NCBI RefSeq assembly: GCF_003569045.1
Contig: NZ_BFCB01000004.1
Span: 62,001 to 126,000, forward strand
Direction of reading: 5' to 3'
Origin: Aggregatilinea lenta
GTDB lineage: Bacteria > Chloroflexota > Anaerolineae > Aggregatilineales > Aggregatilineaceae
Length of the DNA stretch: 64,000 nucleotides
The notes under the pieces were generated by a model, which worked only from the letters and a program-made list of their open reading frames with translations, was not told the DNA's origin and ran no database searches. The position numbers and the translations under genes were made by a program. Below are positions 44,250 through 64,000 of this stretch, piece after piece; within the stretch, counting starts at the first letter, position 1, and each line of letters starts with the position of its first letter.

Positions 44250-44764
44250 GCAGAGACAACCGCATGGAGATCGTGGTGCGCGGCGCTGAAGCCGAGGACT
44301 GGGAAGACGCGGCGATGATTTTTGAGCATCGCGCCGTGATCCGCAATCTGCTCCAAATCCCGTATATGTCGCGCGACACGGTCCGCGACCGCTACGAAAA
44401 CCCCTTGCCGGACCGCCATGCGCTGGTGGCCGTCGTGCACGATCGCGTGGTAGGCATCCTGGGTTTGCACTTCAACACGGGACGCCAGTCGCACGTGGCC
44501 AGCCTGGGCCTGATGGTCCATTCCGACTACCAGGGGCGCGGCGTCGGCACGGCGCTGATGGCCGCCGCCATCGATCTGGCCGAAAACTGGCTGGGCTGCA
44601 CGCGTATGGAGTTGGACGTCTTCACTGACAACGACGTGGCGATCCGGCTGTACCAGAAATTTGGTTTCGAGACGGAGGGCACGCTGCGCCAGTTCGCGAT
44701 GCGCGACGGCGTGCTGGATGACGTCTACCTCATGGCGCGGGTTCGTACCGACGCCGGATCGTGA
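44246..44764 (+). CDS. GNAT-family N-acetyltransferase
   Basis: A 172-residue acetyltransferase. The acetyl-CoA loop YQGRGVGTALM lies at about 92-102, followed by AIDLAENWLGCTRMELDVFTDNDVAIRLYQKFGFE, the classic motif order. The start GTG overlaps the upstream GNAT stop. The substrate is unknown: an amine on a small molecule, a protein or an antibiotic are all possible. The methyltransferase gene starts 14 bases after its stop. Confidence 0.9.
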   Translation: MSRDNRMEIVVRGAEAEDWEDAAMIFEHRAVIRNLLQIPYMSRDTVRDRYENPLPDRHALVAVVHDRVVGILGLHFNTGRQSHVASLGLMVHSDYQGRGVGTALMAAAIDLAENWLGCTRMELDVFTDNDVAIRLYQKFGFETEGTLRQFAMRDGVLDDVYLMARVRTDAGS

Positions 44765-51681: not shown

Positions 51682-52842
51682 TTAGGCCAGCGCCAGGGCG
51701 ATTGCATCAAATTTGATCGAGTAACTTTTCAAGGAAGGTGATATCAAGCCCGGCCTGAAGCGTTTGGTGCGGATACTGCCCTTGGACGAGTCCCTTTTGA
51801 TAATATTGAGCGCCAGTTGTCGCAAGATCGCCATATTGTGGGCGGCGTGCCCAACGCGCACACGAGTATCGTCCTCTCTAAAAATCACGTCTAAGACCCA
51901 GTGGAGACTGTTTTCAACCGCCCAGTGAAAGCGCGTGGCATCCGGGAGAGGTTCAGCCTCAGCGGGCAAGCTGCTGATGTAATAGGCCGTGTCGATTGCG
52001 GACTTGTTTGGCAGTCGTCGCTCGCGTTGGACGCGCACCATCGTCTGCAAATCAGTCCAGCCCTCATCATTACGGATGTACTCAAAAGCGAGCGGGTCGC
52101 TGATGGCCCAGCACCGCCGAATTTCGATGCGTCCGTGTCCTTTGTTGACGGTTTCGGCAGAGCTGTGCTGCAGGTCAGCAAACTGCACGTGGTCCGCATG
52201 GGCGAACCAGTCCTGAATGTCCTGGTGCAAGTGACCCTGATTGTCTTTGACCCGCAGCCGGTAGTCGGCCTTTTCATCGCGGATCGCCTGGGCGAACCTG
52301 GTTTGAGCGCCCATCGCATCGACCGTGACAATACATCCCGCCACATTCAACTGGCGCAGCAGCGGCGGAATCGCCGTGATTTCATTCGATTTTGCGTCAG
52401 TCTTCCCCTGCCCCAAGGCAATTCCGCTGCGCGTGGTCCACGCATTGACCATATGAATGGCATCTTTGCCGATGGTCCGGTTATGGCTGCGCCGCACCGT
52501 CTTGCCGTCGATAGCCATGACCTGACCTCGACGCACCCGAAAGACCCCTTCGACCCAGGGCATGAACGCTGTCTGGAATGCCTCGGCATCCAGCACCGCG
52601 AAAAATCGTCCAAATGTATCGTGGGACGGTATCCCGTGGGGCAGCTTGAGAAATGTCTTCAGCCACTCGTGCTTGGCTTGACCAAAGCGTTCGACATCGA
52701 CCCAACGCGCTGCCCCTGCTAGCACCGCGCACACCGTGATTACGAGTATATCGATCAGCTTGCGATCGCATCGTCCTGCCACTCGCGGATCGGGCAGGTC
52801 TTGAAAACTGATGACTAAGCTGATAGGGTTTTCTTCTGACAT
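51682..52842 (-). CDS. ISAs1-family transposase
   Basis: A 386-residue DDE transposase. SFQDLPDPRVAGRCDRKL starts the family pattern; the acidic residues lie in MAIDGKTVRRS, VTVDAMGAQ and HWAVENSLHWVLDV. All parts seem intact, so it may be active. The reading frame runs through the left inverted repeat and ends 12 bases outside the element, so its stop codon is supplied by flanking DNA. ATG 52842 follows GAGGCGG. Confidence 0.93.
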   Translation of the reverse strand: MSEENPISLVISFQDLPDPRVAGRCDRKLIDILVITVCAVLAGAARWVDVERFGQAKHEWLKTFLKLPHGIPSHDTFGRFFAVLDAEAFQTAFMPWVEGVFRVRRGQVMAIDGKTVRRSHNRTIGKDAIHMVNAWTTRSGIALGQGKTDAKSNEITAIPPLLRQLNVAGCIVTVDAMGAQTRFAQAIRDEKADYRLRVKDNQGHLHQDIQDWFAHADHVQFADLQHSSAETVNKGHGRIEIRRCWAISDPLAFEYIRNDEGWTDLQTMVRVQRERRLPNKSAIDTAYYISSLPAEAEPLPDATRFHWAVENSLHWVLDVIFREDDTRVRVGHAAHNMAILRQLALNIIKRDSSKGSIRTKRFRPGLISPSLKSYSIKFDAIALALA

Positions 52843-56190: not shown

Positions 56191-57438
56191 ATGACGGGGC
56201 ACGGGCAGCGTCTGGTGATTTACGTGGGTGAAAGTGATTCCTGGCGTGGGCGCTCGCTTTATATGAGCATCCTCGAAACGCTGCGTAAGAGCGGCATCGC
56301 GGGGGCGACCGTCACGCGCGGGCTGGCCGGGTTCGGGGCGCACAGCCTGATCCACACGCAGACAATCGAGCGCCTCTCGACCGATCTGCCGGTCATGATC
56401 ACGGTGGTCGATGCGGAGGAGAACATTCAGCGTGCGCTGGCGCTGGTCAAGCCGATGGTCCGCGAGGGTCTGATGACGTTGGAAGACGTGGAGATCGTGA
56501 CCTATACGCACCGCTACCTGCACCCGCTGCCCGCCGACGAGCCGGTGCAAAGCATTATGACGCGCGACGTGGTCACCGTGACGCCGGACGTGCGTGCGGT
56601 GGAGGTCGTCGAGCTGCTGCTGGGCAAGCTGTTCAAGGCGGTCCCGGTGGTGGACGAGGGGCGCCGCGTGGTGGGCATCATCACCGACGACGATCTGCTC
56701 AAGGCGGGCATGCCGGTCCGGCTGGCGGTGGGCCAGCGGCTGGAAACGGCGGACGTACAGGCGCTGCTGGCGAACGTCAGCCGTGACCGGACGGCGGGCG
56801 AGATCATGTCTGGCCCGGCGGTCACCGTGCCGCAGGAGGCGGCGCTGGGGCACGTGGTGCAGGAAATGCTGAAACGCGGCCTGAAGCGTCTGCCAGTGGT
56901 GGACGGCAAAGGCCGGTTGGTGGGTATGGTCAGCCGCCTGGACGTGCTGCGCGCGGCGGCGGGGTATGGGGCGGGCCAGCAGGAAACCGCGCCGCTGCCG
57001 CGGCCAGGGCATACGCTTGCGGATCTGGCGTCGGCACAGGTTCCCAGCGTGAACCTGAATGACGATCTGGTCGATATCCTCCGGCAGATGCTGGCGACGG
57101 ACGTGACCTACGTGGTGGTGCTTGACGAGCAGCAGCAGCCGGTCGGCGTCATCACCGAAGGTGATCTGGTCGCGCGAGTCACTTCCGCCATGCGCGGCAG
57201 CGTGCTTCAGGCGCTGGCGGCGCGCGTGCTGGGCAAAGATCTGCGGCGCGGCGACGCGCTGGCACGGGATATTATGTCCGAACGCGTGCTGACTGCTGCC
57301 CCCGACACGACCCTGCCCGACGCGATTGCGCTCATGCTGAACGAGGGGCGCAAGCGCATCGTCGTCGTGGACGGCGAGGGGCACGCGGTAGGCATCGTCA
57401 GCCGCCAGACCCTGCTGGCCGCCACGCTGGAAGACTGA
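56191..57438 (+). CDS. DUF190 domain fused to four CBS domains
   Basis: A 415-residue cytoplasmic protein. The N-terminal DUF190 (PII-like, about 5-105) starts QRLVIYVGESDSWRGRSLY and has HSLIHTQTIERLSTDLPVMI. Four CBS domains follow (about 115-175, 200-250, 275-330, 350-412), with repeated PVVD or VVVLDE and VGII/VGVIT motifs. DUF190 genes often accompany crcB. CBS pairs bind adenine nucleotides, so it may tune fluoride export to energy status; this is inference. Confidence 0.9.
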   Translation: MTGHGQRLVIYVGESDSWRGRSLYMSILETLRKSGIAGATVTRGLAGFGAHSLIHTQTIERLSTDLPVMITVVDAEENIQRALALVKPMVREGLMTLEDVEIVTYTHRYLHPLPADEPVQSIMTRDVVTVTPDVRAVEVVELLLGKLFKAVPVVDEGRRVVGIITDDDLLKAGMPVRLAVGQRLETADVQALLANVSRDRTAGEIMSGPAVTVPQEAALGHVVQEMLKRGLKRLPVVDGKGRLVGMVSRLDVLRAAAGYGAGQQETAPLPRPGHTLADLASAQVPSVNLNDDLVDILRQMLATDVTYVVVLDEQQQPVGVITEGDLVARVTSAMRGSVLQALAARVLGKDLRRGDALARDIMSERVLTAAPDTTLPDAIALMLNEGRKRIVVVDGEGHAVGIVSRQTLLAATLED

Positions 57439-57536
57439 GAAACCGGGCCGGATCGGGCGTTTGCCGCCTGCCAGTGAACACGGCACAATCGATACCATGA
57501 CTGCGCCTGCACCTCATCGGACCTGAGATCGCATCG

Positions 57537-59048
57537 TTGGCCGTATCACCCGAATTCCCCTCTCCCGATCTACCTGCGGGTAGCGCGCTATCCGATCTGA
57601 CCGGCTTGCTGGGCCGGTCGGGCACGTACGCCCTGAGTGATATCTTCAAGCAGGCGATCAACTTTCTGCTGCTGCCACTGTACACGGCGTACCTGTCCAA
57701 AGCGGACTACGGCGCGCTGTCGATTGCGCTGGCCGCGTCGGCGGTGCTGGAAGTGATCTACGGGCTGGGGCTGCGCGGCGCGATCGGGCGGCTGTACTTC
57801 GACCAGAAGGGCGAGGGACAGGTCCGCGCGTTTCTGGGCACGCTGACCACGTTCCTCACGAGCTATGGCGTGCTGTTGAGCGCGCTGCTGATGCTCGTGG
57901 GTCCGGCGCTGTGGCCGCTGCTGGGGCTGGACGAGTCCGTCCGGTTTTCGCCGTACATCGTGCTGGTGCTGCTGGCCGTGCCGCTGAATAACCTGGGGCT
58001 GGCGCTGGTGCTGCCGTTGTATTACACGCGCGGGCAGGCGCTGCGCTACGCCGCGTACAGCCTGTTCAGCTTCGCGGCGGTGACGGGCGCGACGGTGCTG
58101 CTGGTCGTAGGGCTGGGGCAGGGGGCGGTGGGCGCACTGTGGGGGCGGCTGGTCGCGGCGGTCGTCGTGCTGGCCCCGACGATCTACATCCTGGCGCGCA
58201 ACGTGCGGTTCACGTTCCGCTGGTCGCTGTTCAGCCCCGCGCTGATGTTCAGCCTGCCGCTGGTCCCGCACCTGATCTCGACCTGGGCGCTCAATTTCTC
58301 CGACCGGATCGTGCTGGGCAATTTCGTCTCGCTGGATGACGTAGGCGTGTACACGGTCGGCTACCAGTTCGGGCTGCTGGTCAGCATCGTGATCGCGGGC
58401 ATCAACAACGCCTGGACGCCGTGGTACTTCCGCGCGAACACCGAGGGGCGGCGCGAGCACATCCCCGCGTTTGTGACCTACTTCGTGATCGTCGCGGCGG
58501 CGCTGGCGCTGGGCGCGGCGCTGCTGGCCCGTGACGCCGTGCGCATCATGACCGCGCCCGCCTATCACGACGCGTGGGTGATCGTGCCGCTGGTGGCACT
58601 GGGCTACTTTCTCAACGCGATTGCGCTGCGTTTCATGGACGTGCTGATGCTGCACAAGCGCACCAGCGTGGTGCCGCTGACGACTATCGCCGCCGGGTTG
58701 GCGAACATTGGCTTCAATATCGCCGTGATTCCGCACGTCGGGCTGATCGGCGCGGCGTACGGGACCGTGTTCGGGTATGCGGTGCGGCTGGCGCTAACAG
58801 CGTATTATGCGGCGCGGACCGGCCCGCTGCCGTTCGAATGGGGGCGCGTGCTGCGTGTTTCGGTGCTGGCGCTGGTCGTCGCGCCGGGTCTGCTGCTGCG
58901 CGTGGACCCGGTGTGGCTGGACATGCTGCTCAAACTTGGATTATTCGCGCTGTACCCTGCGCTGCTGCTGGGGACAGGCACATTGAATGCACGGGAGCGG
59001 GTGGCGCTGTGGCGCGGCCTGCGTACGCTAGGGAACAGGGTTCGATGA
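57537..59048 (+). CDS. MOP-family polysaccharide flippase (Wzx-like)
   Basis: A 503-residue membrane protein with about 12-14 helices. TYALSDIFKQAINFLLLPLYTAYLSKADYGALSI is typical of the MATE/Wzx group. It would flip lipid-linked glycan precursors across the membrane. The start is uncertain: TTG 57537 lacks a strong ribosome site. Its stop overlaps the next gene (ATGA), the first of three such overlaps. The operon context ties it to nonulosonate-containing glycans. Confidence 0.88.
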   Translation: MAVSPEFPSPDLPAGSALSDLTGLLGRSGTYALSDIFKQAINFLLLPLYTAYLSKADYGALSIALAASAVLEVIYGLGLRGAIGRLYFDQKGEGQVRAFLGTLTTFLTSYGVLLSALLMLVGPALWPLLGLDESVRFSPYIVLVLLAVPLNNLGLALVLPLYYTRGQALRYAAYSLFSFAAVTGATVLLVVGLGQGAVGALWGRLVAAVVVLAPTIYILARNVRFTFRWSLFSPALMFSLPLVPHLISTWALNFSDRIVLGNFVSLDDVGVYTVGYQFGLLVSIVIAGINNAWTPWYFRANTEGRREHIPAFVTYFVIVAAALALGAALLARDAVRIMTAPAYHDAWVIVPLVALGYFLNAIALRFMDVLMLHKRTSVVPLTTIAAGLANIGFNIAVIPHVGLIGAAYGTVFGYAVRLALTAYYAARTGPLPFEWGRVLRVSVLALVVAPGLLLRVDPVWLDMLLKLGLFALYPALLLGTGTLNARERVALWRGLRTLGNRVR

Positions 59049-60787
59049 CGCGGTTCGTCTTATTTTCGGACGTGGCGCAGCTTGAGGAATTCTCTGCTGC
59101 GCGGGATGACGTGTTTGTGCCGTTGAGCGACAGCGCGGCGCATGCTCTGGCAGTGCGGGGGTGGGCGGAGCGTGTGCTGCCGCTGCCGGATTGGGGCGCG
59201 ATCCAGGCGGCATCGCTGGCGGAGGGGTTCGAGGCGGCGGGAGCGATCCTCGCCGCGTTGGAGGCCGATCCCGCGTGGCGCGCGCTGCTGACTTACCGGG
59301 ACTATGATCTGCGCGCGATGGCACTCAAGAACGTGTTCTTTGCGCTGGAGGATCTGGCCTGCGTGCGGCACGTCGCGGCGCTGGCAGCGGCACAGCCGCA
59401 CGATGCCGTGACCCTGCTGGATGGCGATCCGGCGGTGCGGCGCGCGGTGGCCTCGGCGCTGCCGGAGGTCGGCACCGGGCTGCACGCGGGGGATCTGGCG
59501 CGTGAGTGGGGACTGCCTGTCGCGCGCTTCGGGCGCGATCGCTGGCGCAGTCTGCGCGCGGCCCGTCCCAGGCCGGACACGGCGCTGCGGCCCATCGTCG
59601 CGTTTTTGGACGCCCCGCACCGCGCGCGGATCATGGCGCGCACGCTGGCGCTGCTGGCCCCGGATCACCCGATCCACGCGGCGCAGATTGAGCCGTTCGC
59701 CTGGCCCGCCGATCTCGAACAACGCCCCGACGAGAGCTATCCCTGGTATGCGTATACCTCGCTGGGCGTGGCGTGGCGCATTGCGCGGCACGTGCTCGTC
59801 TCGCGGGCGCGCACTGCCCTGGAGGCGTTCGATCTGCCCGGTGCGGACTGGCTGCCTCGCCAACTGCTGTGGTCGCTGCGCTATAATGACGTGCAGCGCT
59901 ACGCAAACTTCATCGAAGGGCTGGAAGGGCTGGCGGGCGCGCTCCATCCAGCGCTGTGGTTCACGCTGGAGGACCTGTTCGCGTTTGGGAAGTGCGCGGC
60001 GGCGGTCGGCGAGCGGCACGGCATCCCCACCATCAACGTGCAGCACGGCATCGTCGGCGCGTACCCTTACCGCACCGGGATCGACGTGGTGGGCACGTTC
60101 GCGGCGTTTGGCGAAGCCAGCCGCGAGACGCTGATCGCGCGCGGCGCTGACCCGGCGCGTATTGTCGTCACGGGGCCGGTGCGCTACGACGACCTGCTGC
60201 ACCTGCCGCCGGGCCGGGACGGCCTGCTGCGCGGCGCAGGTCTGGACCCAGCGCGTCCGGTGGTGCTGTTCGCGTCACAGCCCGCGCGCCGCCTGATCAC
60301 ACCTGCCATGAAGCGCATCGCGATCCGTGCGCTGGTGGACGCGGCAGCGCAGGCAAACGCGCAGGTGGTGATCAAAGCGCATCCGCTGGAAGACGCCAGC
60401 CTCGGCGCGATTTTGAGCGAAATAAGTGTACCTGTGCCGGTGGTGCAGGAGGACCTGTACGAGTGGCTGTGCGCGTGCGACGTGATGGCGACTATTTCTT
60501 CGACGGTGGTCTACGAGGCGGCCCTGGCGGAGCGGCCCGCGTTGCTGCTGGACTGGTCTGGCAATTCGGACGTGGCCGGGTACGTCGCAGACGGGATCGG
60601 CGTGCGGCCCGCGTCGCCGGGGCAGGTGAGCGAGGCGCTAAATGCTCTGCTCCATGATGAGAGCGCGCGGTCCGCGTTGTTCGCCCGGCAGCGCGCGTTC
60701 GTGACGCACCACCTGAACGGGAACGATGGCCGCGCGTCGGAGCGGTTGGCGCTGTTGGCGCGGCGCTTGATGGGAGAGAGCCTGTGA
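59045..60787 (+). CDS. Predicted GT-B-fold glycan transferase, unknown family
   Basis: A 580-residue soluble protein that I cannot place exactly. The C-terminal half resembles surface-carbohydrate or CDP-glycerol/polysialyl-type transferases: INVQHGIVGAYPYRTG, then VTGPVRYDDLL, VVLFASQPARR, VVIKAHPLED and SSTVVYEAALAERPALLLDWSGN. The N-terminal half is Ala-rich with no known motif. Position between a flippase and a CMP-sugar synthetase suggests it transfers a nonulosonic acid to the glycan. It overlaps both neighbours by 4 bases. Confidence 0.65.
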   Translation: MTRFVLFSDVAQLEEFSAARDDVFVPLSDSAAHALAVRGWAERVLPLPDWGAIQAASLAEGFEAAGAILAALEADPAWRALLTYRDYDLRAMALKNVFFALEDLACVRHVAALAAAQPHDAVTLLDGDPAVRRAVASALPEVGTGLHAGDLAREWGLPVARFGRDRWRSLRAARPRPDTALRPIVAFLDAPHRARIMARTLALLAPDHPIHAAQIEPFAWPADLEQRPDESYPWYAYTSLGVAWRIARHVLVSRARTALEAFDLPGADWLPRQLLWSLRYNDVQRYANFIEGLEGLAGALHPALWFTLEDLFAFGKCAAAVGERHGIPTINVQHGIVGAYPYRTGIDVVGTFAAFGEASRETLIARGADPARIVVTGPVRYDDLLHLPPGRDGLLRGAGLDPARPVVLFASQPARRLITPAMKRIAIRALVDAAAQANAQVVIKAHPLEDASLGAILSEISVPVPVVQEDLYEWLCACDVMATISSTVVYEAALAERPALLLDWSGNSDVAGYVADGIGVRPASPGQVSEALNALLHDESARSALFARQRAFVTHHLNGNDGRASERLALLARRLMGESL

Positions 60788-62469
60788 CGGACGAGCGGCC
60801 CAGGGTGCTGGCGGTGGTGCCCGCACGCGGCGGGTCGAAGGGCATCCCGCGCAAAAATGTGCGGCTGATGGCGGGTCAGCCGCTGATCAGCTACGCGCTG
60901 CGCGCGCTAGCCGCCGCGCAGATGGTCGATTGCGTGGTGGTCTCGACCGACGACGACGAGATCAAGGCCGTGGCGCGGCGCTGTGGCGCGGAGGTGATCG
61001 ACCGCCCGGCTGAACTGGCCGGGGACGCCGTCACGCTCGACCCGGTGGTTTACCACGCCGTGGAGCAGGTCGAGGCGGCGGGATTTTTGCCCGACGTGGT
61101 GCTGACCGTGCAGCCGACCGCGCCGCTGCTGCGCCCCGCAACAATCGATCGTGCCGTGCGGCTGCTGGTCGAGTCCGGCGCGGAGACGGTGATCTCGGTG
61201 GTCAACGAGACACACCTCGCCTGGACCACGGGCGCGGAGGGGCGCGGCGTGCCGCTCTACGAGAAGCGCGTGAATCGCCAGCAGCTCCCCCAGCGTCTGC
61301 GTGAGACGGGCGGCGTGTTCGCCAGCCGTCGCGACATTGTGACGCCGCACAACCGCATTGGGCAGGACGTACGGCTGCTGGAATTGGACCGGCTCGAAGG
61401 GCTGGACATCGACGCGGTGGAAGATTGGTGGATCGCGGAGAAGGCGCTCAATCGGCGGAAGATCGTGTTCCGCGTGGACGGCAGCCCGTGGATGGGGTTG
61501 GGACACGTTTACCGCGCGCTGTCGCTGGCCGGGCGGCTGCTCGACCACGAGCTGCTGTTCGTGATGGATGCCGATTTGCCGCTGGGCGTGGACCTCGTGC
61601 GAGGCGCGTTTTACCCGGTGCAGGCCTTCACCGGCGATCCGCTGCCCGCGATCCGCGAAGCTGGGGCGCAGATCGTCGTGAATGATATTCTGGATACCGA
61701 GGTCGCGTACATCCGCGCGCTGCGAGATATGGGGTTGTTCGTGGTCAATTTCGAGGACCTGGGGCCGGGTAACCACGCGGCACATCTGGTGATCAACGCG
61801 CTGTACGATCCACGCTTCCCGGAAGCCCACATGGTTTGGGGGCCGCCCTACGCCGACCTGCGCGACGAGTTCGCCACCGCGCCGGTCAAGGTCGTGGAGC
61901 CGGACGTGCGGCGCGTGCTGGTCACGTTCGGCGGGGCGGATCCGGCGGACCTGACCGCCAAGACACTGCGCGTGCTGGGCACGATGCCGGGCGACTTCGA
62001 GATCGAGGTGGTGCTGGGGCTGGCGTATGGCCCTCGCGAGGATCTGCGCGTGCAGGCGGCAGCGCTCGGCCCGCGCGTGACGGTCGCGGAGCAGGTGCGC
62101 GACATGAGCCGCCGCATGCACGCCGCCGACCTGGTGATTACGTCCGCTGGGCGCACGGTGTACGAGGTGGCGGCCATCGGCACACCGTGCATCGTCATGA
62201 GCCAGAACGCGCGCGAGCAGCGCCACCTGTTCGCGCTGGCCGAGAACGGCTTCGTGAACCTGGGTCTGGGCGCGGACGTGCCCGACGAGACGCTGCGCGA
62301 TGCGGTCGCGCGGCTGGTGGGCGATTACACGCAGCGCCAGCAGATGAGCGCGCGCATGTTGGCGGCGGACATTCGCGGCGGCACGGGGCGCATCGTGCGG
62401 CTGATGTTGGAGCGTTACCGGGCGTTTGAAGCGGCGATCCTTGACACTGTCACGCGGAGGGACGTATGA
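60784..62469 (+). CDS. Fused CMP-nonulosonate synthetase and PseG-like hydrolase
   Basis: A 561-residue two-domain protein. The N-terminal domain (1-222) is an acylneuraminate cytidylyltransferase: VVPARGGSKGIPRKN, STDDDEI, QPTAPLLRP and GLDIDAVEDW. The C-terminal domain (about 225-550) resembles PseG, the UDP-sugar hydrolase of pseudaminic acid synthesis: IVFRVDGSPWMGLGHVYR (with the Gly-His motif), LVTFGGADPADLTAKTL and ITSAGRTVYEVAAIGTPCI. One polypeptide would thus release the hexose precursor and later activate the nonulosonate with CTP. It starts at GTG, overlapping the upstream stop, and overlaps the NeuB-type gene by 4 bases. Confidence 0.88.
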   Translation: MTDERPRVLAVVPARGGSKGIPRKNVRLMAGQPLISYALRALAAAQMVDCVVVSTDDDEIKAVARRCGAEVIDRPAELAGDAVTLDPVVYHAVEQVEAAGFLPDVVLTVQPTAPLLRPATIDRAVRLLVESGAETVISVVNETHLAWTTGAEGRGVPLYEKRVNRQQLPQRLRETGGVFASRRDIVTPHNRIGQDVRLLELDRLEGLDIDAVEDWWIAEKALNRRKIVFRVDGSPWMGLGHVYRALSLAGRLLDHELLFVMDADLPLGVDLVRGAFYPVQAFTGDPLPAIREAGAQIVVNDILDTEVAYIRALRDMGLFVVNFEDLGPGNHAAHLVINALYDPRFPEAHMVWGPPYADLRDEFATAPVKVVEPDVRRVLVTFGGADPADLTAKTLRVLGTMPGDFEIEVVLGLAYGPREDLRVQAAALGPRVTVAEQVRDMSRRMHAADLVITSAGRTVYEVAAIGTPCIVMSQNAREQRHLFALAENGFVNLGLGADVPDETLRDAVARLVGDYTQRQQMSARMLAADIRGGTGRIVRLMLERYRAFEAAILDTVTRRDV

Positions 62470-63530
62470 AATCCGTTCTGATTGGCGAGCGCCGGATCGG
62501 ACCTGGCGAACCGGCGTACGTCATCGCGGAAGCCGGGGTGAACCACAAGGGCAGCCTGGACGCGGCGCGACGCATGATCGACGAGGCGAAACGCGCCGGG
62601 GCGGACGCGATCAAGTTCCAGACGTATAAGGCCGACAAGCTGGTGACGCGCGCCGCGCCGCGCTATTGGGACGACGCCGAGGCGAGCGGCACGCAGTACG
62701 CGATCTTCAAGCAGTCGGATACGTTTGGTGAGGCGGAGTATCGTGCGTTGTTCGAGCACGCGGGGGCGGCGGGTATCACGTGGCTGTCCACGCCGTTCGA
62801 CCTGGACGCGGTGGCGTTTCTGGATGCGCTGGGCATGCCCGCGTTCAAGATCGCGTCCGCAGACCTGACCAACGTGCCGCTGCTGGAAGCGTGCGCGCGC
62901 ACGGGCAAGCCGGTGATCCTTTCGACCGGGGCCTCGACGCTGGACGAGGTGCGCGCCTCCGTGGACGTGCTGCGGCGGGCGGGCTGTGCCGATCTCGTGC
63001 TGCTGTACTGCGTGTTGAGCTATCCCACGCGCGACGAGGACGCGAACCTGCGGCGCATGGTGACGCTGCAGGCGGCGTTCCCGGACGTGCCGGTTGGATT
63101 CTCGGATCACACGATCCCCGACGACTGCGTGATCGTGCCCTCGGCGGCGGCGGCGCTCGGCGCGGCGGTGATCGAAAAGCACTTCACGCTGGACCGGACG
63201 CTGCCCGGCGACGACCATTATTTGTCGGTCGATCCGGGACAACTGGCGACGCTGGTGCGCAACTGCCGCGTCATCGCGGAGGTGGTGGGCGACGATCAAT
63301 TTTCCGTGCAGGCGAGCGAGGAAGCGGCGCGGGCCTACGCGCGGCGCAGTATCGTCGCGGCGGTGCATATCCCGGCAGGCACGGTCATCAGACCCGACAT
63401 GCTGATTATGAAACGTCCCGGCACAGGCATTTCGCCCGTCGAAGTGGACCGGTTGGCGGGTCGCGCGGCAGCGGTGGACATCCCCGAAGACACGACGATC
63501 ACGTGGGAGATGGTCGCGCCAAGTTCATAG
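62466..63530 (+). CDS. NeuB/PseI-family nonulosonate synthase with SAF domain
   Basis: A 354-residue enzyme that condenses a 6-carbon sugar with phosphoenolpyruvate. The TIM barrel (1-275) has YVIAEAGVNHKGSLDAARRM, AIKFQTYKADKLVT, STPFDLDAVAFLDALGMPAFKIASADLTN and GFSDHTIPDD, plus EKHFTLDRTLPGDDHYLS. The antifreeze-like SAF domain (about 290-350) has RRSIVAAVHIPAGTVI. Whether the substrate is ManNAc or an altrose derivative cannot be told; the PseG-like neighbour favours pseudaminic-type chemistry. It starts at ATG 62466, overlapping the fusion gene. Confidence 0.93.
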   Translation: MKSVLIGERRIGPGEPAYVIAEAGVNHKGSLDAARRMIDEAKRAGADAIKFQTYKADKLVTRAAPRYWDDAEASGTQYAIFKQSDTFGEAEYRALFEHAGAAGITWLSTPFDLDAVAFLDALGMPAFKIASADLTNVPLLEACARTGKPVILSTGASTLDEVRASVDVLRRAGCADLVLLYCVLSYPTRDEDANLRRMVTLQAAFPDVPVGFSDHTIPDDCVIVPSAAAALGAAVIEKHFTLDRTLPGDDHYLSVDPGQLATLVRNCRVIAEVVGDDQFSVQASEEAARAYARRSIVAAVHIPAGTVIRPDMLIMKRPGTGISPVEVDRLAGRAAAVDIPEDTTITWEMVAPSS

Positions 63531-63589
63531 CCGTTAGTTTTTAGTTGTTAGTCCAGAACGGTGGCGTGGGCGGAGTGGTTTGCCGGGCA

Positions 63590-63633
63590 GACCTCACCCC
63601 CGGCCCCTCTCCAATCAAGCTGGAGAGGGGAGA
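63590..63633. repeat. Palindromic repeat resembling the 8236 element
   Basis: CTCACCCCCGGCCCCTCTCC followed after 9 bases by GGAGAGGGG. The same kind of sequence lies inside the MITE-like element at 8222-8265. Sequences of this kind are dispersed in many bacterial genomes. Confidence 0.5.
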
Positions 63634-63705
63634 CAAGCAGAAATCGGCGGGTTTTGTAGGGCGGATTTCCAAACCCGTCCGGTTCTTACGCAAAATTCTC
63701 AATGC

Positions 63706-64000
63706 CTACAGCCAATCGAGCTTCTTGAACAGCAGCAGCAGCCCGGTGACGAGGCCGATCATCAGCGCCAGCACGAACGGCACGCCCCACACCGTGCCGA
63801 ACGGCGGCCACGTGTCGTTGAAGTTCATGCCGTAAAAGCCGCTGATGACGGTCAGCAGGCCGATCAGCACGGTGACGATGGTCAGGCGGTTCACGACGAC
63901 GTTCAGCCGGTTGGACACGGCGGACATGTACAGGTCCAGCGTGCCGGTGAGCGTGTCGCGGAACGTGTTCACCATCTCTGCAATCCACATCAGGTGATCG
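63706..64000 (-). CDS. corA: CorA-family magnesium channel, C-terminal part
   Basis: At least 97 residues at the 3' end of a gene that begins beyond the window. Two membrane helices with the channel motif YGMNF (GMN) at the end of TM1 identify the CorA family. The sequence reads NRLNVVVNRLTIVTVLIGLLTVISGFYGMNF, then TWPPFGTVWGVPF and a second helix ending in FKKLDWL. It forms pentameric Mg2+ or Co2+ channels. Confidence 0.93.
   Translation of the reverse strand, partial: DHLMWIAEMVNTFRDTLTGTLDLYMSAVSNRLNVVVNRLTIVTVLIGLLTVISGFYGMNFNDTWPPFGTVWGVPFVLALMIGLVTGLLLLFKKLDWL

What the first reader, a model, noticed from the sequence alone, without database searches (positions are those of the whole stretch)
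57537..63530. Compact operon linking a flippase, an unknown transferase, a CMP-synthetase/PseG fusion and a NeuB-type synthase
Four genes overlap by 4 bases each, implying strict co-translation. The fused gene joins the hydrolase step of pseudaminic-type synthesis with the CMP-activation step, two reactions not consecutive in the pathway: the NeuB-type step lies between them. With the flippase and an unplaced GT-B-like protein, this looks like a nonulosonate-glycan export cassette, perhaps with a new kind of transferase. The early steps (PseB/PseC/PseH-like) are not here.
Basis: partly seen in the sequence, partly recalled or inferred. Interest (0 to 1): 0.72.

Follow-up and report, generated by a model that had tools for sequence, protein, structure and literature searches.

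The report
Sialic-acid-like sugar operon with fused enzyme
Four tightly packed genes in a bacterium, probably of the phylum Chloroflexota, look set to make, activate, attach and export a sialic-acid-like sugar; the unusual part is one protein that joins a CMP-sugar synthetase to a hydrolase that resembles the pseudaminic acid enzyme PseG but lacks one of its tyrosines.

Summary
In detail: four conserved genes (57537-63530) with three 4-base overlaps: flippase, GT-B protein, a fusion of CMP-nonulosonate synthetase with a PseG-superfamily domain, and a NeuB-type synthase. A nonulosonate cassette is supported; "pseudaminic-type" and "new kind of transferase" are not. The NeuB fits NeuB/NnaB better than PseI, though below both cut-offs. 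The hydrolase domain aligns with most of C. jejuni PseG and keeps its His17, but Tyr78 is replaced in 7 of 7 aligned members of its own clade (5 fusions, 2 phage-contig proteins). In 3 of 4 annotated Pse operons viewed, pseF and pseG are neighbours or one gene apart, upstream of pseI, so the fusion probably joins gene neighbours rather than consecutive reactions. The GT-B protein passes the TagB/TagF-like PF04464 cut-off; its relatives co-occur with CMP-nonulosonate synthetases. The fusion loci seen carry no early-step genes; the genome has unlinked candidates (PglF, LegC-like, NeuD). Product most likely legionaminic- or neuraminic-type, unsettled. Bold reading: the PseG-like domain does NeuC's job, so no early genes are needed. 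New variant of a known kind.

The parts
57537..59048 (+). Wzx-type polysaccharide flippase (503 aa)
   Evidence: Pfam Polysacc_synt 70.2 bits, cut-off 28.2; present in L026 and, cut at the contig end, in L027
59045..60787 (+). GT-B protein (580 aa), candidate CMP-nonulosonate transferase; C-terminal part TagB/TagF-like, with HP at 446-447 and SST at 485-487; the N-terminal part matches no family
   Evidence: PF04464 26.6 bits (cut-off 22.1), PF02350 35.0 (cut-off 30.6); NF046086 BFO_1060 1.8e-5 and TIGR04396 9.4e-7, both below cut-off; profile A6 finds TarL 3e-8 and TagF 5e-5 in PDB; motifs
60784..62469 (+). Fusion: CMP-nonulosonate synthetase + PseG-superfamily domain (561 aa)
   Evidence: AlphaFold model pLDDT 83.8 with NeuA-like (6ifd Z 28.1) and MurG/PseG-like (1nlm Z 28.4, 3hbm Z 23.1) halves
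60784..61458 (+). CMP-nonulosonate synthetase domain (residues 1-225), RGGSKGIPRKN from residue 15
   Evidence: PDB hits are CMP-Neu5Ac synthetases first, best 1.5e-27; motif
61459..62466 (+). PseG-like domain (residues 226-561); GLGHVYR 238-244 holds the His17 equivalent; NDILDT 300-305 stands at the Tyr78 motif; NFEDLG 322-327
62466..63530 (+). NeuB-type nonulosonate synthase with SAF domain (354 aa); SDHT 213, EKHFT 237, KRPG 316
   Evidence: PF03102 277.1 bits and SAF 43.9 bits; aligned to NmNeuB 1xuu and SpsE 1vli; motifs

Best explanation
An operon for a nonulosonic acid of the neuraminic/legionaminic kind. The C-terminal domain of the fusion cuts the nucleotide off a UDP-2-acetamido sugar, the NeuB-type synthase condenses the free sugar with PEP, the N-terminal domain of the fusion activates the nine-carbon acid with CTP, the GT-B protein transfers it to a lipid-linked glycan and the flippase exports that glycan. 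Favoured substrate here: UDP-2,4-diacetamido-2,4,6-trideoxyglucose made by unlinked PglF, LegC-like and NeuD genes, giving legionaminic acid as proposed for SpsM-C-D-G-E-F of Bacillus subtilis; a plain neuraminic acid product is the main alternative. Shown: gene order, domains, conservation, clades and motifs. Inferred: every catalytic step, the product, the acceptor and export.
For: Domain and fold assignments. It is the only nonulosonate route found in the genome: one strong NeuB (a second, 45.9-bit match passes the Pfam cut-off but sits, by eye, among aromatic-pathway genes), one long PseG match, one hit to the fusion at 1e-20, no NeuC over cut-off. Fusion-linked NeuBs (4 of the 4 put in the tree, plus one phage-contig NeuB) form one clade at 100/100, apart from five PseI; fusion PseG-like domains (5 of 5 put in, plus two phage-contig ones) form one clade at 100/99. 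GT-B relatives: 7 of 399 other phylum genomes; 6 of these 7 also have a CMP-synthetase hit (background 55 of 399; P 3e-5, post hoc), and in 4 the two lie 6.5-12.2 kb apart on one contig. PglF, LegC-like and NeuD genes exist in the genome; the syntenic relative G400 has a PglF-LegC pair 59% and 68% identical to them. Precedents: spsG, spsE, spsC, spsD and spsM are needed for legionaminic acid in B. subtilis (PMC7439481, passages and one section; that SpsG is PseG-like is recalled, and the PseG model rings in B. subtilis without naming the gene); T. forsythia GtfS transfers a pseudaminic acid derivative (PMC6120980, passages).
Against: The precursor genes are unlinked and of families with many other uses; PseB, PseC and LegC models stay below cut-off. 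Two carriers of the fusion fit the legionaminic route badly: G021 has no PseB/PglF/FnlA-family dehydratase beyond a 24.9-bit hit, and the only strong sugar aminotransferase of Marinilactibacillus lies in an FdtA/RmlA/RmlB operon, though by score it is as near PseC (225.1 bits) as its best model (227.2). SpsB, a TagB-like protein, was not needed for Leg transfer in B. subtilis. The GT-B model was too poor to use (pLDDT 40.8). SpsG could not be compared.
Confidence: 0.62

Rival explanations
1. NeuC-less sialic acid route: the PseG-like domain hydrolyses UDP-GlcNAc with inversion at C2 (or UDP-ManNAc made by WecB) to ManNAc, so that fusion and NeuB (plus WecB in the second case) make CMP-Neu5Ac and no early-step genes are needed.
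For: In the stretches at hand 0 of 6 cellular fusion loci hold PglF/FnlA-PseB/PseC-LegC/NeuD relatives, while 5 of 5 comparison loci hold at least one (L135 and L138 were fetched because of such genes, L091, L144 and L145 were not; L027 shows 4.2 kb in all and L029 only 0.9 kb downstream). NeuB model beats PseI by 59-95 bits in the four full-length fusion-linked NeuBs. Tyr78 is replaced in 7 of 7. The 22-kb Marinilactibacillus locus holds WecB (494.9 bits) and a gene over the PF07388 polysialyltransferase cut-off (42.7 bits, cut-off 23.3); the G021 locus holds WecB (371.8 bits). The window genome has a gene over the WecB cut-off (263.3 bits, cut-off 210.15).
Against: The syntenic relative G400 has a separate NeuC (361.6 bits) - CMP synthetase - NeuB cluster and no WecB-like match (its completeness is not told), so the cassette there is redundant or makes something else. 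The window genome's WecB-like gene sits beside FnlA- and RmlD-like genes and may serve another sugar. M. thaueri has no WecB or NeuC match over cut-off. The polysialyltransferase-like gene finds no solved relative by phmmer.
Confidence: 0.27
2. A true pseudaminic acid pathway with PseB/PseC/PseH supplied from elsewhere.
For: PseF and PseG models are the best NCBIfam matches of the two fusion halves; gene order resembles pseF-pseG-(pseH)-pseI; M. thaueri, which carries a fusion, has a separate cluster with PseB, PseG and PseI over cut-off.
Against: No PseB or PseC over cut-off in the genome; best PseH 60.7 bits, cut-off 93.1; the five PseI form their own clade at 100/98 without this NeuB; the PseG-like domain lacks Tyr78.
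Confidence: 0.06
3. The C-terminal domain has lost hydrolase activity or acts as a GT-B transferase or regulatory module, and the operon only activates and transfers a nonulosonate made from salvaged or supplied sugar.
For: GT-B fold at least as close to MurG as to PseG by structure (1nlm Z 28.4, 3hbm Z 23.1); Tyr78 replaced; the M. thaueri copy departs further.
Against: His17 equivalent kept in 17 of 17 aligned proteins; sequence prefers PseG to MurG; dN/dS 0.26 in the PseG part.
Confidence: 0.1

Closest known systems
Bacillus subtilis sps legionaminic acid pathway (SpsG, SpsE, SpsF, SpsM, SpsC, SpsD; SpsB)
   Same: PseG-like protein (recalled) + NeuB-type synthase + CMP synthetase, a TagB-like protein in the operon, and an unlinked first-step dehydratase (PMC7439481)
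   Different: spsF and spsG are separate genes and spsC, spsD are in the operon; here F and G are fused and no aminotransferase or acetyltransferase is linked; SpsG sequence not compared
Pseudaminic acid operon pseB-C-F-G-H-I
   Same: Both halves of the fusion have their best NCBIfam match in PseF and PseG; pseF and pseG lie close together upstream of pseI in 3 of 4 operons viewed
   Different: pseB, pseC, pseH not linked; NeuB not PseI-like; Tyr78 of PseG replaced
NeuA-NeuB-NeuC sialic acid pathway
   Same: CMP synthetase and a synthase nearest NeuB/NnaB
   Different: no NeuC over cut-off in the genome; a PseG-superfamily domain stands where NeuC would be
TagB/TagF/TarL superfamily (PF04464)
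   Same: PF04464 match, TarL/TagF as best solved relatives; PMC7439481 names two TagB-domain proteins of T. forsythia as plausible Pse and Leg transferases (passage)
   Different: N-terminal half without a family; BFO_1060 and TIGR04396 only below cut-off; whether T. forsythia GtfS is one of the TagB proteins was not checked

Membership tests
PseG (UDP-sugar hydrolase of the Pse pathway) | score above the NCBI equivalog cut-off (153.55 bits) | tested here: not met
   123.6 bits; other fusions 146.4, 104.7, 110.9; M. thaueri PseG 178.7
PseG (UDP-sugar hydrolase of the Pse pathway) | GxGHxxR with the His17 equivalent | tested here: met
   GLGHVYR 238-244; His kept 17 of 17, Arg 16 of 17
PseG (UDP-sugar hydrolase of the Pse pathway) | Tyr78 of C. 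jejuni PseG (its active-site role is recalled; the paper is not held) | tested here: not met
   Leu/Ala in 7 of 7 of this clade; Tyr in 9 of the other 10, His in the Solidesulfovibrio protein
NeuB/NnaB N-acetylneuraminate synthase | score above the equivalog cut-off (399.65 bits) | tested here: not met
   357.7 bits; PseI 279.7 against cut-off 340.25
NeuB superfamily synthase | NeuB domain plus SAF domain | tested here: met
   277.1 and 43.9 bits
CMP-nonulosonate synthetase | CTP_transf_3 domain and fold of CMP-Neu5Ac synthetases | tested here: met
   79.9 bits; 1qwj 1.5e-27; 6ifd Z 28.1, rmsd 2.3, 196 aligned
PF04464 TagB/TagF-like GT-B proteins | gathering score | tested here: met
   26.6 bits, cut-off 22.1; the L026 and L027 orthologues score 16.4 and 16.5, below it
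CMP-nonulosonate transferase | transfer from a CMP-nonulosonate | not testable with these tools
   inferred from operon, HP motif and co-occurrence only
Pseudaminic acid pathway | PseB, PseC, PseH over cut-off in the genome | tested here: not met
   best 299.4 of 407.75, 374.3 of 423.5, 60.7 of 93.1 bits
Legionaminic acid pathway, sps type | UDP-GlcNAc 4,6-dehydratase, C4 aminotransferase, acetyltransferase in the genome | tested here: inconclusive
   PglF-type 188.9, 184.3 and 173.1 bits on the PseB model, LegC-like 299.3 bits below cut-off 420, NeuD 189.8 over cut-off 160.8; all unlinked

The most novel reading that the evidence does not exclude
A NeuC-free sialic acid route: a hydrolase clade split from PseG (Tyr78 replaced, 'ND.LDT' and 'NFEDLG' motifs), fused to the CMP synthetase and paired with its own NeuB clade in Chloroflexota and Firmicutes (and, with a shortened NeuB, in a methanogen) and unfused on a phage contig, turns UDP-GlcNAc, or UDP-ManNAc from WecB, into ManNAc, so that two or three genes suffice for CMP-Neu5Ac.
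Probability: 0.25. Interest if true: 0.7.

Novelty: new variant of a known kind. Interest (0 to 1): 0.5.

Why it matters
PseG-like genes are read as signs of pseudaminic acid. Here is a separate clade of the PseG superfamily, fused to the CMP synthetase and tied to a NeuB clade nearer NeuB/NnaB, in loci that show no early-step genes; calling such organisms Pse producers would probably be wrong. If the domain replaces NeuC, bacterial sialic acid synthesis would have a second way to free ManNAc. In the eight literature searches made I saw no description of this fusion in the listings or passages; the library lacks most subscription journals.

Tried and rejected
GT28 reading of the C-terminal half: disfavoured by sequence, though by structure MurG scores at least as well as PseG. 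'New transferase': structure prediction of the GT-B protein failed (pLDDT 40.8), so no fold search was made with it. A first GT-B profile (A5) gave MGDG synthase as best hit because it held L095 (G322), which passes the MGDG synthase cut-off; I dropped it and rebuilt. GT-B relatives: 7 non-own genomes before, 6 after dropping G322; of the 6, G217 and G065 have the two genes on different contigs, so linkage is unknown. WecB route as the main reading for the window: not chosen, because G400 shows no WecB-like match and the window genome's copy, though over the WecB cut-off, sits beside FnlA. The second NeuB hit of the genome (C1:713579, 45.9 bits) looks like a DAHP synthase by eye, not tested. 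The DegT gene beside the C1 NeuD fits dTDP-4-dehydro-6-deoxyglucose aminotransferase best (537.6 bits, cut-off 650) and was not used as precursor evidence. Left out of the trees: the M. thaueri NeuB (L029; ends before the SAF domain, EKLFT for EKHFT), the cut L027 fusion (its motifs NDILDT and NFEDLG are visible) and the phage locus L112, which repeats L111. A control that does not fit the pseF-pseG order: L142 has pseG-pseH-pseI with no pseF in its 9 kb. No promoter-like site was found in 57380-63760. Absent rows in the VIA-align list are not used as evidence.
Full report
What is there. The four genes are confirmed on the + strand at 57537-59048, 59045-60787, 60784-62469 and 62466-63530, with three 4-base overlaps. 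The window is C4:62001-126000 of a 6.2-Mb genome, 98.38% complete and 4.66% contaminated. The same four genes stand downstream of gyrA and upstream of a CorA-like gene (by eye) in L026, from a MAG titled Chloroflexi, and the flippase (cut), GT-B and fusion (cut) follow each other in L027, titled Anaerolineae; that the window is Chloroflexota is inferred from these. Against L026, dN/dS is 0.35 (flippase), 0.36 (GT-B), 0.24 (fusion) and 0.25 (NeuB), with gyrA at 0.23. So the operon is real and under purifying selection. Overlaps of 4 bases are ordinary here: two other same-strand pairs in the window have them, and in L026 one junction is a 310-base gap.

The fusion. Residues 1-225 are a CMP-nonulosonate synthetase: CTP_transf_3 79.9 bits, best PDB relative murine CMP-Neu5Ac synthetase 1.5e-27. 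Residues 226-561 belong to the PseG superfamily: TIGR03590 123.6 bits, MurG 23.2 bits; Pfam names only the GT28 C-terminal domain, 28.2 bits. A six-sequence profile finds C. jejuni PseG (3hbm) at 3.4e-21 over residues 1-242 of 282, a processive diacylglycerol glucosyltransferase at 4.4e-8 and MurG at 5.9e-6. The predicted model is good (pLDDT 83.8, pTM 0.72); its halves match CMP-Neu5Ac synthetases and MurG/PseG. By structure MurG (Z 28.4, 308 aligned) is at least as close as PseG (Z 23.1, 264 aligned), so the PseG assignment rests on sequence.

Why these two domains. Of four annotated Pse operons viewed, three run pseC-pseF-pseG-pseH-pseI (L144), pseB-pseC-GT2-pseF-pseG::GNAT-pseI (L145) and pseB-pseC-pseF-x-pseG-pseH-pseI (L141); the fourth shows pseG-pseH-pseI without pseF in its 9 kb (L142). 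The fusion joins what were probably neighbouring genes, and pseH is missing between it and the synthase. That is inference from gene order.

Not a standard PseG. On an alignment of 17 proteins the His17 equivalent of 3hbm is kept in 17; Tyr78 is kept in 3hbm, in all 5 PseG taken from Pse clusters and in 3 of 4 looser plasmid relatives (the fourth has His), but is Leu or Ala in 7 of 7 of the clade that holds five fusions and two phage-contig proteins. That clade has support 100/99 (13 rows; the tool warns of long branches that meet there, so the fork may be less sure than it looks). That Tyr78 matters in catalysis is recalled; the structural paper is not held.

The synthase. P0004 scores 357.7 bits as NeuB/NnaB and 279.7 as PseI, below both cut-offs; the fusion-linked NeuBs of L026, L028 and L079 behave alike (gaps of 80, 59 and 95 bits), while the PseI of the M. 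thaueri Pse cluster scores 508.3 as PseI and 320.9 as NeuB. In a 20-row tree the four fusion-linked NeuBs and one phage-contig NeuB form one clade at 100/100; the five PseI form another at 100/98; the deeper forks are weak. So the product is probably not pseudaminic acid, but the tree does not say which other acid it is.

Spread. The one scan of genome contigs gave 4 loci: two Chloroflexota MAGs, Marinilactibacillus kalidii and Methanobrevibacter thaueri. Among 400 phylum genomes (own included) 56 have a match at E <= 1e-20; only the own genome and G021 match over the full length, one (G267) matches in the hydrolase half, and the other rows shown lie in the CMP half. The M. thaueri fusion is followed by a short NeuB that ends before the SAF domain, and that genome has a separate cluster with PseB, PseG and PseI over cut-off.

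Precursors. Within the stretches at hand, 0 of 6 cellular fusion loci carry a relative of PglF, FnlA/PseB, PseC/LegC or NeuD, while each of 5 comparison loci carries at least one. Of these five, L135 and L138 were fetched because of such genes and are circular; L091, L144 and L145 were not. L027 and L029 are short on one side. In the own genome: FnlA-like C3:1488764 (299.4 bits as PseB), PglF-types at C2:263510, C3:1454577, C3:1247319; PseC/ArnB-like C2:265908; NeuD (189.8 bits, over cut-off) and a LegC/PseC-like gene at C3:1492821-1494573; best PseH 60.7 bits; no NeuC over cut-off; one gene over the WecB cut-off, beside FnlA. G400 holds a PglF-LegC pair and also a separate NeuC/CMP-synthetase/NeuB cluster. 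G021 lacks the dehydratase family beyond 24.9 bits, and its one strong aminotransferase, nearest PseC at 221.3 bits, is close to Gmd. In M. kalidii the only strong aminotransferase lies in an FdtA/RmlA/RmlB operon, while WecB and a polysialyltransferase-family gene lie in the fusion locus. No single precursor route fits all carriers. In B. subtilis the sps genes, spsG among them, are needed for legionaminic acid from UDP-sugars, with the first gene unlinked (PMC7439481, passages and section 9). I favour that kind of route for this organism, at modest odds over a neuraminic acid route in which the domain acts like NeuC.

The GT-B protein. It passes PF04464 and PF02350 (its L026 and L027 orthologues pass neither), its profile's best solved relatives are TarL and TagF, and it has weak, below-cut-off matches to TIGR04396 and the BFO_1060 glycosyltransferase domain. 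PMC7439481 says that two TagB-domain proteins of T. forsythia are plausible Pse and Leg transferases and that SpsB itself was not needed for Leg transfer; PMC6120980 reports GtfS as a Pse5Am7Gra transferase; that GtfS is one of the two was not checked. Of 7 other phylum genomes with a match, 6 also have a CMP-synthetase match (55 of 399 background, P 3e-5; post hoc), and in 4 both lie 6.5-12.2 kb apart; glycan genes cluster anyway, so this is support, not proof. G322, the seventh, is an MGDG synthase by Pfam. The acceptor and the glycan remain open.

Verdict. A real nonulosonate operon with one unusual feature: a fused CMP synthetase and a PseG-superfamily domain of a distinct clade. New variant of a known kind.

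Noticed in passing
L111:7998-10951 (IMGVR_UViG_3300014613_000020): A contig catalogued as viral carries an unfused PseG-like gene of the same clade, a cytidylyltransferase-family gene and a NeuB of the same clade, with two DegT-like genes nearby.
   Followed up: partly
L029:9986-12495: Methanobrevibacter thaueri carries the fusion with an altered hydrolase motif and a 279-aa NeuB that ends before the SAF domain, while a Pse cluster lies elsewhere (L135).
   Followed up: partly
L149:3951-6717 (Solidesulfovibrio carbinolicus plasmid): A 285-aa NeuB with no SAF match, a PseF and an overlapping PseG-like gene with His at the Tyr78 place, beside PfkB, SIS and transketolase genes: perhaps another nonulosonate route.
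   Followed up: no
loci, e.g. L041, L043, L045: In many genomes of the window's class the CMP-synthetase match covers only about the first 220 residues of the query in open frames of roughly 400-460 aa, so another C-terminal domain may be fused there.
   Followed up: no
L028:17320-18390: Marinilactibacillus gene over the Pfam cut-off for alpha-2,8-polysialyltransferase in the fusion locus; no solved relative by phmmer.
   Followed up: partly
L153:5920-9949: The syntenic relative G400 has a second, NeuC-type nonulosonate cluster next to Wzt/Wzm-like transporter genes.
   Followed up: partly
L091:14609-17788: In G282 the GT-B relative is part of a 1059-aa open frame near CMP-synthetase, NeuB, NeuC-like and LegC-like genes.
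   Followed up: no
window 51682-52842 (-): Transposase-like ORF (by eye, no family search) just upstream of gyrA.
   Followed up: no
window 44414-44734 (+): Best PseH-model match of the genome (60.7 bits, below cut-off 93.1), 13 kb from the operon; probably a general GNAT acetyltransferase.
   Followed up: no
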